From NCBI RefSeq assembly GCF_028748145.1, contig NZ_CP118181.1, positions 992,211 through 1,056,210 of the forward strand: a stretch of 64,000 bases of DNA, read 5' to 3'. The translations under genes were made by a program, and so were the position numbers. The notes below the pieces were generated by a model, which worked only from the letters and a program-made list of their open reading frames with translations, was not told where the DNA came from and ran no database searches. Of this stretch, positions 33,122 to 44,564 are shown one piece after another. How positions within the stretch are numbered: the first letter of the stretch is position 1; each line of letters begins with the position of its first letter. Origin of the DNA: Entomospira culicis (lineage in GTDB: Bacteria > Spirochaetota > Spirochaetia > WRBN01).

Positions 33122-33150
33122 TTGACTTTTTTTTTGTATTGATGTATCAT
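33122..33150 (+). promoter_or_regulatory. promoter of the Trp-codon leader and NSS transporter
   Basis: TTGACT (33122-33127) and TATCAT (33145-33150) are 17 bases apart, followed by a strong AAGGAGG ribosome-binding site at 33163-33169. Confidence 0.6.
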
Positions 33151-33177
33151 AACACTAGGTTAAAGGAGGATGATGAG

Positions 33178-33330
33178 ATGTTTTCTGTTGTATCTACCCA
33201 TGTAGCGTCTAAACGTCTCTTAGCGACATCTCTTCCTACACAAATTTTAGGTTGGATCAATCCACAGAACGCGCCTTTTCTCCACACCTCTACTGGTTGG
33301 TGGGGATCTGTGCACTATTATAAACATTGA
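33178..33330 (+). CDS. leader peptide with tandem Trp codons (attenuator)
   Basis: The 50-codon ORF is preceded by AAGGAGG with 8-base spacing. It ends TGWWGSVHYYKH, with Trp26, tandem Trp41-Trp42 (33298-33303) and Tyr47-Tyr48. It resembles no known protein domain and lies between a promoter and an intrinsic terminator upstream of an amino-acid transporter, so I read it as a regulatory leader peptide. GGGGATC (33302-33308, overlapping the second Trp codon), GATCCTT (33329-33335, overlapping the stop) and AGGGATC (33368-33374, in the terminator) are mutually pairable. They would be segments 1, 2 and 3 of a trp-type attenuator. The regulatory role is inference. Confidence 0.7.
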   Translation: MFSVVSTHVASKRLLATSLPTQILGWINPQNAPFLHTSTGWWGSVHYYKH

Positions 33331-33364
33331 TCCTTACTTAAACATAGGCAAATAGTTGATAGGA

Positions 33365-33393
33365 AAGAGGGATCATGAAGGTCCCTCTTTTAT
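33365..33393 (+). terminator. intrinsic terminator/attenuator before NSS transporter 1
   Basis: AAGAGGGA (33365-33372) pairs perfectly with TCCCTCTT (33382-33389) around a 9-base loop, followed by TTTTATTTT-type sequence. It lies 32 bases before the transporter start codon and after the leader ORF, so it must be read through for the transporter to be made. Confidence 0.8.
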
Positions 33394-33424
33394 TTTATAA
33401 TCACGTCTCAAGGAGGAGATTGAT

Positions 33425-34765
33425 ATGGCAGAACAACGAGCCCAATGGAGCTCTCATTTTGGATTCCTCATGGCAATCATTGCCAGCGCGGTGGGCTTGG
33501 GAAGCATTTGGCGTTTCCCCTACTTGGTGGGTAGCAACGGTGGCGGAGCTTTTATTTTAGTCTACACGCTGATTATGCTCTTTGTTGGCATCATCGGTGT
33601 ATCGGTAGAGATCGCCATTGGGCGTCATAGTCAAAGCGATACGATTACTAGTTACGTTCGGCTAGCGCCCAAAAGCAAGCCCCTCGCCTATATCGCTATC
33701 GGCACGAGTTTTCTCCTCATGACGATGTATAGCGTGCTAGGCGGTTGGGTGCTACACTATCTCTATCTCTCGATTAGCGGAGAGATTACCCAGCTTGATG
33801 CGCACCACTTTCGGCACTTTACCCAGAGTTATCAGCCCATCTTTTGGCAATTCATCTTCATTGTTGCCAGCGCAAGCATCTTGATTGGTGGGGTTAATAA
33901 AGGCATCGAGCGCTATAGCATTTGGCTCAATATTCTCCTTATTTTGATTCTCTTTATCATTATCGGACGCTCCCTTACCCTCCCTGGGGCAATGGAAGGG
34001 GTGCGCTTTCTCTTCTACCCCGACTTCCATAAACTTACCGACGCAAACGTCTGGTTGAGCGCGACTGGACAAGCCTTCTTCAGCATGTCCCTAGGTGGGG
34101 GAGTGATGATCACTTACGGTGGCTATTTGGATAAAAAGAGCAACATTTTGCGCTCCTCAAGCATTGCCGGATTAACCACTATCGTGATGGCGCTCTTGAT
34201 GGGCTTGGCGATCTTCCCTGCGCTCTTTGCCATGGGCGAGAGCCCCACCGAAGGGCCAGGACTCCTCTTTAATCTTTTACCCCGCGTCTTTGCCCAAATG
34301 CCTGCCGGCGGACTCTTTGCTACACTCTTCTTCTTAGCAACCTTCTTTGCCGCCCTCACCAGCGGAGCTAGTCTGATTGAACCGCTCAACGCAAGCTTTA
34401 TCCAAACCCAAAAGATCAAACGATCTACGGGCGTCTGGCTCATCGCGCTCAGCACCTTTGTCATCAGTCTTATCCTCGCCCTCTCCCAACACGCCAACTC
34501 AAAACTCCTCATTAACGATATCACCCTCTTTGACGCGCTAAACTTCATCATCGACAAACTCTTCTTCCCCTTCAATGCGCTCGTCGCCCTCATTCTTGCC
34601 GGCTGGTTCTGGAAAAAACGAGGCATTATCCACGAACTCTCCAACCAAGGTAGCCTCAAGCTCCCCTTTCCCAAACTTCTATGGTGGGGCATTCGCTATA
34701 TCTTACCCATACTCATTTCGTGGATTGTCTTAAAACCCTTTATCGATTATCTAATAAAAAAATAG
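33425..34765 (+). CDS. Na+-dependent NSS-family amino-acid transporter, probably Trp/aromatic
   Basis: The 446-residue membrane protein imports an amino acid with sodium. TM1 holds the unwound substrate/Na+ segment SAVGLGSIWRFPYLVGSNGGGAF, and TM6 holds SATGQAFFSMSLGGGVMITYGGYL; both are signatures of the sodium:neurotransmitter symporter family. The length is that of the 11-helix MhsT-like bacterial members, shorter than LeuT. The protein ends with the helix YILPILISWIVLKPFIDYLIKK. AAGGAGGAG precedes the ATG. The upstream leader with tandem Trp codons suggests tryptophan as substrate; this is inferred from regulation, not from the binding site. Two paralogues lie at 35.1 and 43.2 kb. Confidence 0.93.
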   Translation: MAEQRAQWSSHFGFLMAIIASAVGLGSIWRFPYLVGSNGGGAFILVYTLIMLFVGIIGVSVEIAIGRHSQSDTITSYVRLAPKSKPLAYIAIGTSFLLMTMYSVLGGWVLHYLYLSISGEITQLDAHHFRHFTQSYQPIFWQFIFIVASASILIGGVNKGIERYSIWLNILLILILFIIIGRSLTLPGAMEGVRFLFYPDFHKLTDANVWLSATGQAFFSMSLGGGVMITYGGYLDKKSNILRSSSIAGLTTIVMALLMGLAIFPALFAMGESPTEGPGLLFNLLPRVFAQMPAGGLFATLFFLATFFAALTSGASLIEPLNASFIQTQKIKRSTGVWLIALSTFVISLILALSQHANSKLLINDITLFDALNFIIDKLFFPFNALVALILAGWFWKKRGIIHELSNQGSLKLPFPKLLWWGIRYILPILISWIVLKPFIDYLIKK

Positions 34766-34805: not shown

Positions 34806-34834
34806 TTGCATTTTTGTGTAGATTATGGTATATT
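34806..34834 (+). promoter_or_regulatory. promoter of the His-Phe-Tyr-Phe leader and NSS transporter 2
   Basis: TTGCAT (34806-34811) and TATATT (34829-34834) are 17 bases apart. They lie 31 bases upstream of the leader ORF and 40 bases after the first transporter gene. Confidence 0.55.
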
Positions 34835-34865
34835 TTTCTTAATTTAATGGAGGCAGTGTATTTTT

Positions 34866-34994
34866 ATGCGACACATCAATCATTCTGTACTTATCACGAT
34901 TTACACTGTACTCACCGTTTATGCGCGTGCGTTTAATGCTACTCGTAGCCATGGTCATTTTTACTTTGCAAGAAGGCAGCGCGCGCTTGAGTAG
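34866..34994 (+). CDS. leader peptide with His-x-His-Phe-Tyr-Phe run (attenuator)
   Basis: The 42-codon ORF contains RSHGHFYFARRQRALE at its end; His31-Phe32-Tyr33-Phe34 are codons 34956-34967. GGAGG lies 12 bases before the ATG, a long but workable spacing. Like the leader at 33178 it sits between a promoter and a strong terminator in front of an NSS transporter. TTGAGTA (34987-34993), overlapping the stop codon, is perfectly complementary to TACTCAA (35031-35037), which forms the top of the terminator's ascending arm and its loop. A ribosome finishing the leader would mask TTGAGTA; one stalled at the aromatic codons would leave it free. The role is inference. Confidence 0.62.
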   Translation: MRHINHSVLITIYTVLTVYARAFNATRSHGHFYFARRQRALE

Positions 34995-35023
34995 ACGGAT
35001 TTTATCATCATAAAAGATAAAGC

Positions 35024-35057
35024 AGAAGGATACTCAAAAGGTATCCTTCTTTTTTTA
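35024..35057 (+). terminator. intrinsic terminator/attenuator before NSS transporter 2
   Basis: AGAAGGATAC (35024-35033) pairs perfectly with GTATCCTTCT (35041-35050) around a 7-base loop and is followed directly by seven T's. It ends 29 bases before the transporter ATG. Confidence 0.88.
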
Positions 35058-35085
35058 TAAACACTAGAGAAGACAAGGAGTGAAT

Positions 35086-36423
35086 ATGTCTGCAAAAGAA
35101 GAGAGCTGGAGCTCGAATTTTGGCTTTATGATGGCGATGATCGGTAGTGCGGTGGGCTTGGGAAGCATCTGGCGCTTTCCCTACATGGTAGCGCAAAGTG
35201 GTGGCAGTGCCTTTATCTTTATCTATGTAACAATGATGTTGGTCGTGGGCATTATTGGCATGGCGGTAGAGACGGCCTTAGGGCGCAACAGTGGTGTAGA
35301 TGCCGTGGATAGCTATGCCAAAATAGCCCCGAAAAGCAAGATTTTGGGTTATATACCCGTATTAACGGGATTTTTATTAGCCACCATCTACACGGTGTTG
35401 GGTGGTTGGGCGCTCTCTTACTTTGCACAATCGCTCTTTTTTCAGCTAGGAAATAACGATTTTGAAGCATTTCGCGTCAGTCAAGAGCCTCTTTTCTGGC
35501 AGATTCTCTTCCTCTTTTTAACAATGTTAATTTTGAGTTTAGGGGTCTCTAAAGGTATCGAAAAGTACAGCACGTTGATGAATTTTCTGCTTTTAGGGAT
35601 GATCTTAATCATAGTATTCTTCTCCTTACAGCTAGAAGGCGCAATGGCGGGCGTATACTATCTCTTTACGCCTAAATTTGAAGCATTCAAAGATCCAACA
35701 ATTTGGTTGATGGCAACGGGGCAAGCCTTTTTTAGTCTTTCGCTAGGATCTGGGGCGATTCTCACCTACGGAGTTTATGTCGACAAAAAGAGTCCCATTC
35801 TACGATCCAGCGCCATTACCGCCATCGCCTCCATTGTTATGGCGTTGTTGATGGGCTTAGCGATCTTTCCTGCCGTCTTTGCCATGGGACAAGAGCCAAA
35901 CGCAGGTCCTGGACTCCTCTTTGTTACACTGCCTTTAGTCTTTAACAAGATGCCCGGCGGAGCGATCTTCGCGATCCTCTTCTTTGCTGCAACCGTCTTC
36001 GCCGCCCTCACCAGCTCGGTATCGATGATTGAACCTGCATTGCGCCGTATTTCCAACCAAATGAATATCAGCCGAACAAAAACGACATGGTCGCTCTTTG
36101 CCATATTGGTCGTGCTAGGTGCACCAATGGCACTTGCCCCTGGACTGCTATCTTCGGTTAAGATTCTTGGACTAAATCTTTTCGACACAATGAATTTCTT
36201 AATCGACAAAATCATGATGCCCTTCAATGGAATTGTTACCTTTATCTTAGCAGGCTGGCTCTGGAAAAAACGTGGCATCGTTACCGAGCTCTTAGGCGAA
36301 GAGAAGAGCAACTCTGCATTCGGCACGTTCTTATTATGGCTCGTACGCTTGATTGCTCCCACCTTAGTAGCTATCGCGGTACTTAAGCCACTATATGATT
36401 ATATTATCACAAAACTTCATTAA
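35086..36423 (+). CDS. Na+-dependent NSS-family amino-acid transporter 2, probably aromatic/His
   Basis: The 445-residue paralogue of the preceding transporter has the same signatures: SAVGLGSIWRFPYMVAQSGGSAF in TM1, ATGQAFFSLSLGSGAILTYGVY in TM6, and LAGWLWKKRGIVTEL near the end. I chose the ATG at 35086 (AAGGAG 5 bases upstream); an in-frame GTG at 35080 overlaps the ribosome-binding site. The TM1 sequence differs from transporter 1 at the SNGGG/QSGGS position, close to the substrate site, which fits a different substrate. The leader peptide points to Phe, Tyr or His. It is closed by a terminator at 36451. Confidence 0.92.
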   Translation: MSAKEESWSSNFGFMMAMIGSAVGLGSIWRFPYMVAQSGGSAFIFIYVTMMLVVGIIGMAVETALGRNSGVDAVDSYAKIAPKSKILGYIPVLTGFLLATIYTVLGGWALSYFAQSLFFQLGNNDFEAFRVSQEPLFWQILFLFLTMLILSLGVSKGIEKYSTLMNFLLLGMILIIVFFSLQLEGAMAGVYYLFTPKFEAFKDPTIWLMATGQAFFSLSLGSGAILTYGVYVDKKSPILRSSAITAIASIVMALLMGLAIFPAVFAMGQEPNAGPGLLFVTLPLVFNKMPGGAIFAILFFAATVFAALTSSVSMIEPALRRISNQMNISRTKTTWSLFAILVVLGAPMALAPGLLSSVKILGLNLFDTMNFLIDKIMMPFNGIVTFILAGWLWKKRGIVTELLGEEKSNSAFGTFLLWLVRLIAPTLVAIAVLKPLYDYIITKLH

Positions 36424-43217: not shown

Positions 43218-44564
43218 ATGTCTTCGCAAAAAGAACAATGGAGTTCCAATTTTGGCTTCTTAATGGCAACCATCGCGAGTGCGGTAGGCTTGGGTAGTAT
43301 CTGGAAATTCCCCTATTTGGTGGGGAGCAATGGCGGTAGCGCCTTTATTATTATATATACAATATTGATTATTCTGATTGGTATTCTGGGACTAAGCGTA
43401 GAAAATAGTGTGGGTCGCTTTGGTGGCACCAACGTGGTGGATAGTTATGCAAAAATTCACCCCAAAGCCAAGTGGCTAGGAACCATCGCCCTCCTTGGGG
43501 CCTTTCTTGTCTTTCTTATTTACAGTGTCTTAGGTGGGTGGGTCTTGCATTATCTCTTTAAGCTTGGCACCTTTCAGCTACAAAATGTGGCAACCAGCAC
43601 CTACTTTTCTAGCTTCATGCAAAGCGATGAGGCGTTGATCTGGCAGATTTTATTCACCCTAGCCACCATGTGGATTGTGGGGCAAGGGGTAGCCAAAGGT
43701 ATCGAAAAGTATAGCACGGTGATGAATATCTTGCTCTTTGCCCTCATTATCTTGGTGGCGATAAGAGGTCTCTCTCTGCCCAACGCCAAAGCCGGTATCG
43801 ACTTTCTCCTCAAGCCCGATCCAAGCGCCTTCAGCAACCCTAAAATCTGGCTCACCGCTACCGGTCAAGCGCTCTTTAGCCTCTCTTTAGGCATGGGCAT
43901 CATGGTAACTTATGGTAGCTACGTACCCAAGCAATCGAAGATCCTAAAGTCTAGTTTAATCGTCAGCTTTTCCACCTTGATTATGGCAATCTTGATGGGC
44001 TTTGCTATCTTTCCCGCGCTCTTTGCCATGGGCTTTAGCCCCGAAGGAGGCGCAGGTCTCCTCTTTATCGTCTTGCCCGAGGTCTTTGCCAAAATGAGCG
44101 GGGGTACCATTTTTGCCGTGGCCTTCTTTGTCGCAACCTTCTTTGCTGCCATCACCAGTGCCGTCTCCATCATCGAGCCAATTGTCTCTTACCTGATGCA
44201 CAAATTCAACCTATCGCGAAAAAAGGCAACCATCTCCCTTACCCTCATCACCTTAGTGCTAAACACACCTATTGCACTAGCACATGGACGCTTTAGTGGC
44301 TGGACGATTAACGGAAAGAATCTTTTTAACACCCTAGACTTTCTCACCGACTCTATTTTATTGCCACTCAATACGCTTATTGTCGTGATTCTTGCCGGCT
44401 GGTTCTGGAAAAAGCGTGGCTTCCTCACCGAGTTGAGTAACCAACATAGCTTGAAGTTGCCCTATCCAACCGTGCTCTTATGGATTGTGCGAATCCTCAT
44501 TCCCCTCACCATCCTCATTATCGTCGGGGTAACGTTTTATCCCATAATAGTTAGCGCTAAGTAG
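43218..44564 (+). CDS. Na+-dependent NSS-family amino-acid transporter 3
   Basis: The 448-residue third paralogue has SAVGLGSIWKFPYLVGSNGGSAF in TM1 and ATGQALFSLSLGMGIMVTYGSY in TM6. The Arg after Ile-Trp in the other two is Lys here, and the second extracellular region differs. AAGGAG precedes the ATG. Unlike the first two copies it has no leader ORF or attenuator upstream, so it is regulated differently and may have another substrate. It ends with LTILIIVGVTFYPIIVSAK and a strong hairpin terminator. The family's sodium-coupled mechanism is established; the substrate is unknown. Confidence 0.93.
   Translation: MSSQKEQWSSNFGFLMATIASAVGLGSIWKFPYLVGSNGGSAFIIIYTILIILIGILGLSVENSVGRFGGTNVVDSYAKIHPKAKWLGTIALLGAFLVFLIYSVLGGWVLHYLFKLGTFQLQNVATSTYFSSFMQSDEALIWQILFTLATMWIVGQGVAKGIEKYSTVMNILLFALIILVAIRGLSLPNAKAGIDFLLKPDPSAFSNPKIWLTATGQALFSLSLGMGIMVTYGSYVPKQSKILKSSLIVSFSTLIMAILMGFAIFPALFAMGFSPEGGAGLLFIVLPEVFAKMSGGTIFAVAFFVATFFAAITSAVSIIEPIVSYLMHKFNLSRKKATISLTLITLVLNTPIALAHGRFSGWTINGKNLFNTLDFLTDSILLPLNTLIVVILAGWFWKKRGFLTELSNQHSLKLPYPTVLLWIVRILIPLTILIIVGVTFYPIIVSAK

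What the first reader, a model, noticed from the sequence alone, without database searches (positions are those of the whole stretch)
34806..35079. Second attenuator, with a His-Phe-Tyr-Phe leader, before the adjacent paralogous transporter
Seen: promoter, 42-codon leader ending RSHGHFYFARRQRALE, then a perfect 10-bp hairpin with a T run, then the NSS gene. TTGAGTA (34987-34993), overlapping the leader stop, is a perfect 7-base complement of TACTCAA (35031-35037), the top of the ascending arm plus loop. As in the first leader, the anti-terminator element is placed where a terminating ribosome would hide it and a ribosome stalled at the aromatic codons would expose it. The codon content resembles pheA/hisL-type leaders. 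Two neighbouring paralogues thus appear to carry different amino-acid sensors matched to their likely substrates.
Basis: partly seen in the sequence, partly recalled or inferred. Interest (0 to 1): 0.8.

Follow-up and report, generated by a model that had tools for sequence, protein, structure and literature searches.

The report
Leader-peptide attenuator before amino-acid transporter
A mosquito-gut spirochaete that lacks key enzymes for making aromatic amino acids, histidine and arginine appears to switch on an amino-acid importer when translation of a short upstream peptide stalls, a classic control circuit that the papers held here do not report from spirochaetes.

Summary
The anatomy is real. 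At 34806-35086 lie a promoter-like site, a 42-codon leader (34866-34994) and a terminator hairpin (35024-35050) 35 nt before an MhsT-like NSS transporter gene. The 7-nt element 34987-34993, overlapping the leader stop, is complementary to 35031-35037. In folding simulations calibrated on E. coli pheL and hisL, the antiterminator forms when a ribosome halts at about codons 26-38 and never when it reaches codon 40 to the stop. Shuffled leaders do this in 7 of 400 trials. In 864 kb of the same chromosome only this gene and its neighbour NSS1 (Trp-Trp leader) have the full arrangement. The genome matches Entomospira culicis BR151 and lacks chorismate synthase, histidinol dehydrogenase and argininosuccinate synthase, so starvation control of an importer makes sense. 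The 'His-Phe-Tyr-Phe sensor' claim is weaker. The stall window also holds three Arg codons, two of them rare tandem AGA-AGG; structure does not single out the aromatic codons; no single amino acid dominates; and the SD lies 12 nt from the ATG. No leader was found before NSS homologues outside this genome, so codon conservation could not be tested. Most likely: a ribosome-mediated attenuator, specificity unproven. New member of a known kind, in a new phylum and on a new type of target.

The parts
34806..34834 (+). promoter-like site: TTGCAT, 17 nt, TATATT with extended -10 TG; expected start of transcription about 34841
   Evidence: read from sequence; -35 is only 3/6, not reported by the consensus scan; the gene has no room for a promoter between the terminator and its start codon
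34849..34853 (+). Shine-Dalgarno GGAGG of the leader, 12 nt before the ATG (long spacing)
   Evidence: genome spacing distribution
34866..34994 (+). 42-codon leader peptide ORF, MRHINHSVLITIYTVLTVYARAFNATRSHGHFYFARRQRALE
   Evidence: codon score +1.9 bits, about the 99th percentile of non-coding, versus -16.6 for the GTG 34856 alternative frame
34941..34979 (+). stall window, codons 26-38 (TRSHGHFYFARRQ), in which a halted ribosome leaves element 2 free
34915..34945 (+). candidate element 1: CCGTTTATGCGCGTGCG and CTACTCG, which can pair with 34978-35000 (weak, depends on where the transcript is taken to start)
34987..34993 (+). element 2, TTGAGTA, overlapping the leader stop codon TAG (34992-34994)
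35003..35023 (+). small A+T-rich hairpin between elements 2 and 3 that brings them together in the predicted antiterminator
   Evidence: folds
35024..35050 (+). intrinsic terminator hairpin with T run; element 3 (TACTCAA, 35031-35037) is the top of its ascending arm plus loop
35086..36423 (+). NSS2, sodium:neurotransmitter symporter family transporter, MhsT-like
   Evidence: PF00209 E 2.3e-56; NF037979; MhsT 4us3 E 7.2e-84
33122..33424 (+). companion attenuator before NSS1: promoter 33122-33150, leader 33178-33330 with Trp-Trp codons, element 1 33299-33308, element 2 33328-33335, terminator 33363-33391
33425..34765 (+). NSS1, adjacent paralogue (52% identical to NSS2)

Best explanation
The region is a ribosome-mediated transcription attenuator controlling an MhsT-like amino-acid importer. 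RNA polymerase transcribes the leader while a ribosome translates it. If charged tRNA is plentiful the ribosome runs to the stop codon, covers TTGAGTA, the 35024-35050 hairpin forms and transcription ends before NSS2. If the ribosome slows in the HGHFYF(ARR) stretch, TTGAGTA stays free, pairs with TACTCAA in the ascending arm, the terminator is delayed and NSS2 is transcribed. Shown here: the elements, their pairing, the dependence of the predicted antiterminator on ribosome position, and the lack of the marker biosynthesis enzymes tested. Inferred: that the leader is translated, that the hairpin terminates, that starvation (most likely for His/Phe/Tyr) is the signal, and that NSS2 imports those amino acids.
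For: Elements present at exact coordinates. Antiterminator P=1.00 with the ribosome at codons 26-38 and 0 at codon 40 to stop when only downstream RNA folds; 0.70-1.00 versus 0 with the whole transcript from the promoter, apart from 0.53 at one position with the largest footprint. E. coli pheL and hisL show the expected behaviour at their control codons in the same simulation; pheL uses the same top-of-ascending-arm geometry. Shuffle tests 0.007 and 7/400. Unique with NSS1 among 778 ORFs in 864 kb. Leader codon usage gene-like in this frame. No chorismate synthase or histidinol dehydrogenase in the genome. Terminator 35 nt from the gene with no room for a promoter after it. The neighbouring paralogue has the same arrangement with Trp codons.
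Against: SD spacing of 12 nt suggests weak leader initiation. The 2:3 helix is only 7 bp (-5.9 kcal/mol) against a -14.5 terminator, leaving the lower 7 bp of the terminator stem free to nucleate. The protective 1:2 structure is not robust: the antiterminator also forms in untranslated RNA starting at the promoter (P 0.78). Control codons are mixed, none dominant. No orthologous leader found. No transcript or translation data.
Confidence: 0.62

Rival explanations
1. The same attenuator, but the halting codons are arginine: CGT27, AGA36, AGG37 (and CGC39). NSS2 expression then answers Arg shortage, or the tandem rare AGA-AGG is a built-in pause that couples ribosome and polymerase whatever the amino acid.
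For: AGA 3.3 and AGG 1.5 per 1000 codons against 17-18 for CGT/CGC; Arg is 3 of 13 residues in the stall window, P=0.024; antiterminator probability is highest at codons 37-38; no argininosuccinate synthase, so Arg must also be imported.
Against: His/Phe/Tyr together are 5 of 13, P=0.011, and nearly contiguous; the closest solved relative, MhsT, carries hydrophobic and aromatic amino acids (PMC9350835); in a short leader rare Arg codons may just reflect base composition.
Confidence: 0.17
2. A non-specific translation-speed attenuator: any slowing or failure of leader translation lets NSS2 be transcribed, and the codons carry no amino-acid information.
For: Predicted antiterminator forms at every stall position from codon 26 to 38 and with no ribosome at all from the promoter start (P 0.78); weak SD spacing.
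Against: His/Phe/Tyr cluster placed exactly in the stall window; the NSS1 leader next door places Trp-Trp at its own critical point.
Confidence: 0.12
3. Not an attenuator: the hairpin is the terminator of NSS1 (or a constitutive partial terminator), and the leader ORF and complementarity are chance.
For: 7-bp complementarities to a fixed arm arise in a few percent of shuffles over a 67-nt upstream stretch (0.024-0.037); no relative to show conservation.
Against: No promoter space after the terminator, so NSS2 must be transcribed through it; terminator lies about 259 nt beyond the NSS1 stop; stop-codon placement of element 2, codon bias and the twin arrangement before NSS1 all coincide.
Confidence: 0.09

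Closest known systems
E. coli pheL-pheA attenuator (and hisL-hisG, trpL-trpE)
   Same: translated leader with aromatic/His codons near its end, stop codon beside element 2, element 2 pairing with the top of the ascending arm plus loop of the terminator (pheL TGGGAGGC/GCCTCCCA, here TTGAGTA/TACTCAA), ribosome-position-dependent antiterminator
   Different: longer leader (42 against 15-16 codons), mixed control codons in place of a run of one residue, weaker 2:3 helix, no robust 1:2 protector, target is an importer and not a biosynthetic operon, spirochaete host
Firmicutes and Actinobacteria leader-peptide attenuators (PMC2965389, PMC1262725)
   Same: ribosome-mediated attenuation outside Proteobacteria; PMC2965389 argues such leaders can arise repeatedly from random sequence and accompany gene duplication (hisS paralogues)
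   Different: those found control synthetases and biosynthesis genes; no spirochaete and no NSS transporter is named in the main-text passages searched
Companion NSS1 (Trp-Trp) attenuator in this window
   Same: promoter, leader, terminator and spacing in the same order; flanking segments show faint similarity
   Different: leader bodies are unrelated in sequence; NSS1 is more selective for a stall at or just after Trp41/42
MhsT, hydrophobic amino-acid transporter of the NSS/SLC6 family
   Same: closest solved structure of NSS2 and NSS1 (E 7.2e-84 and 2.6e-78); substrates include Trp, Tyr and Phe (PMC9350835)
   Different: TM6 G-x-G motif is GMG in MhsT but GSG in NSS2 and GGG in NSS1 (alignments); substrates of NSS1/NSS2 unknown

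Membership tests
Ribosome-mediated transcription attenuator | short ORF with SD between promoter and terminator | tested here: met
   ORF 34866-34994 with GGAGG, but spacing 12 nt is unusual
Ribosome-mediated transcription attenuator | intrinsic terminator before the first structural gene | tested here: met
   35024-35050, -14.5 kcal/mol and T run
Ribosome-mediated transcription attenuator | mutually exclusive antiterminator that depends on ribosome position | tested here: met
   P23 high at codons 26-38, 0 at codon 40 to stop; pheL and hisL controls
Ribosome-mediated transcription attenuator | 1:2 protector giving termination without translation | tested here: inconclusive
   forms when folding from the leader ATG but not from the promoter start
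Ribosome-mediated transcription attenuator | repeated control codons for the amino acid of the regulated pathway | tested here: inconclusive
   H2 F2 Y1 but also R3 in 13 codons; P=0.011 for HFY, 0.024 for R; transporter substrate unknown
Ribosome-mediated transcription attenuator | leader translated in vivo and readthrough responds to starvation | not testable with these tools
   needs reporter or ribosome profiling; codon bias only
pheA or hisL leader families (Rfam) | match to the Rfam covariance model | tested here: not met
   no Rfam family at gathering score in the window
T-box or riboswitch | match to a T-box or riboswitch model | tested here: not met
   no Rfam match
NSS/SLC6 transporter family (PF00209) | family profile over curated cut-off | tested here: met
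   192 bits against cut-off 27

The most novel reading that the evidence does not exclude
In an auxotrophic spirochaete, tandem paralogous importers carry separate leader-peptide sensors whose control codons diverged with their substrates (Trp for NSS1; mixed His/Phe/Tyr for NSS2), so that a duplicated transporter and its translational sensor specialised together. This would be the first ribosome-mediated attenuation in Spirochaetota and on an NSS transporter, to the extent of the literature held here.
Probability: 0.35. Interest if true: 0.65.

Novelty: new member of a known kind. Interest (0 to 1): 0.45.

Why it matters
If true, it extends ribosome-mediated attenuation to spirochaetes and to an importer in an organism that, by the marker genes tested, cannot make the sensed amino acids, and it makes leader codons usable as a clue to substrates of uncharacterised NSS transporters. 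The two adjacent leaders give a compact test of whether sensor codons and transporter specificity evolve together.

Tried and rejected
T-box, riboswitch or known leader family: no Rfam match. Alternative leader frames: GTG 34856 (VYFYATHQSFCTYHDLHCTHRLCACV) has non-coding codon usage (-16.6 bits) and its stop would lie beside element 1, which by inference would reverse the logic; ATG 34921 has a similar codon score (+1.0) but no SD. Comparative test: NSS homologues in 394 class-level genomes and 80 loci from other phyla are at most 39% identical where identity was reported, and none of the upstream regions examined carries a comparable leader; the only other genome of the order (G001) has no NSS gene; other Entomospira genomes are not in the collections, so conservation and covariation could not be tested. 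First genome-contig scan found nothing. Equilibrium folding of the complete transcript always gives the terminator, for hisL as well and at most positions for pheL, so only folds before arm 4 is complete are informative. The across-ribosome result, where NSS2 showed P23 near 0 at HFYF, was traced to starting the transcript at the ATG and omitting the 5' UTR. No structure prediction was run: MhsT alignments already fix the fold, and substrate cannot be read from a model.

Full report
Where it is. The window is part of a 1,639,587-base chromosome in a genome of 1,769,585 bases and four contigs (contig length). The three small contigs sum to 129,998 bases, exactly the plasmid sizes of Entomospira culicis BR151 (98,591 + 28,402 + 3,005; PMC11636382), a spirochaete from mosquito midgut; sampled GC is 45.6%, matching 45.8% in the paper. 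The identification is inferred from sizes.

Observation. The promoter-like site is weak. There is no room for another promoter between terminator and gene, so transcripts must read through the hairpin.

More than chance. A helix as strong as 2:3 near the leader stop occurs in 0.7% of dinucleotide shuffles. Keeping the terminator and shuffling everything upstream, 7 of 400 sequences sequester the arm when a ribosome is stalled and free it when the ribosome is at the stop. In 864 kb of the chromosome (53%), among 778 ORFs, only NSS1 and NSS2 combine an SD-led short ORF, a terminator within 40 nt of the gene and an antiterminator at the leader stop.

Switch simulation. The ribosome was modelled as a masked footprint, and folding was computed before the descending arm is complete. 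With only RNA ahead of the ribosome folding, the antiterminator of NSS2 has P=1.00 for A-site codons 26-38 and 0 from codon 40 to the stop. With the whole transcript from the promoter and pairing across the ribosome allowed, it is 0.70-1.00 in the two main footprints (one value of 0.53 with the largest) and still 0 from codon 40. E. coli pheL and hisL, fetched as controls, give the expected pattern, and pheL uses the same geometry. The NSS1 leader is more selective: low at most codons before Trp41, apart from a patch at codons 37-38, and high from Trp41/42 to about Tyr47. Limits: the final structure always favours the terminator at equilibrium, as in hisL, so the switch is kinetic; and NSS2 lacks a robust 1:2 protector, so untranslated RNA may also read through (P 0.78).

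Is the leader translated. Codon usage in the leader frame scores +1.9 bits, at about the 99th percentile of composition-matched non-coding sequence and above the 5th percentile of real genes; the GTG 34856 frame scores -16.6, while ATG 34921, which has no SD, scores +1.0. The GGAGG is 12 nt from the ATG, longer than nearly all other genes sampled. Translation is therefore plausible but may be inefficient.

What is sensed. The stall window TRSHGHFYFARRQ has five His/Phe/Tyr (P=0.011) and three Arg (P=0.024), the latter including tandem AGA-AGG, which are rare codons here. Structure alone does not choose between them. Theory says sensitivity needs a high fraction of control codons (PMC1183508), which no single amino acid reaches. 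The genome lacks chorismate synthase, histidinol dehydrogenase and argininosuccinate synthase, so all of these amino acids must probably be imported. NSS2 is closest to MhsT, which carries Trp, Tyr, Phe and aliphatics (PMC9350835); this favours the aromatic reading. His is not among the MhsT substrates listed in that passage.

Comparison. NSS genes in other spirochaetes and other phyla have no comparable leader in the upstream regions examined; the best are under 40% identical. NSS1 and NSS2 upstream regions are faintly similar at the flanks but not in the leader body, compatible with tandem duplication followed by divergence, not proof of it. A third NSS paralogue (43218) has no leader, and these three are the only NSS genes in the genome. 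PMC2965389 (2010) stated that leader-peptide systems had been shown only in Proteobacteria and Actinobacteria, adding Firmicutes; no spirochaete case appeared in the papers held here, a limited library.

Verdict. It is a new member of a known regulatory kind in a new phylum and on a new type of target.

Noticed in passing
33122-33424: The companion leader before NSS1 (50 codons, TGG-TGG followed by GGATC) has a complete 1:2 (-12.5), 2:3 (-8.9), 3:4 (-18.0 kcal/mol) set and behaves as a Trp attenuator in the same simulation; it is better defined than the NSS2 one.
   Followed up: yes
43218-44552: A third NSS paralogue (53% identical to NSS2) 7 kb downstream has its own promoter-like site and no leader or terminator; TM6 motif is GMG as in MhsT, whereas NSS1 has GGG and NSS2 GSG.
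   Followed up: partly
34971-34976: Tandem rare arginine codons AGA-AGG just after HGHFYFA in the leader.
   Followed up: yes
34849-34936: An overlapping frame (VYFYATHQSFCTYHDLHCTHRLCACV) is also rich in Tyr, Phe and His but has non-coding codon usage and no good start site.
   Followed up: partly
L117 18723 (+), chromosome about 578.7 kb: A -12.7 kcal/mol terminator-like hairpin 28 nt before a gene (MSIRIYVEGERALWTRPENK..., possibly a Cas5-type protein) with no leader ORF.
   Followed up: no
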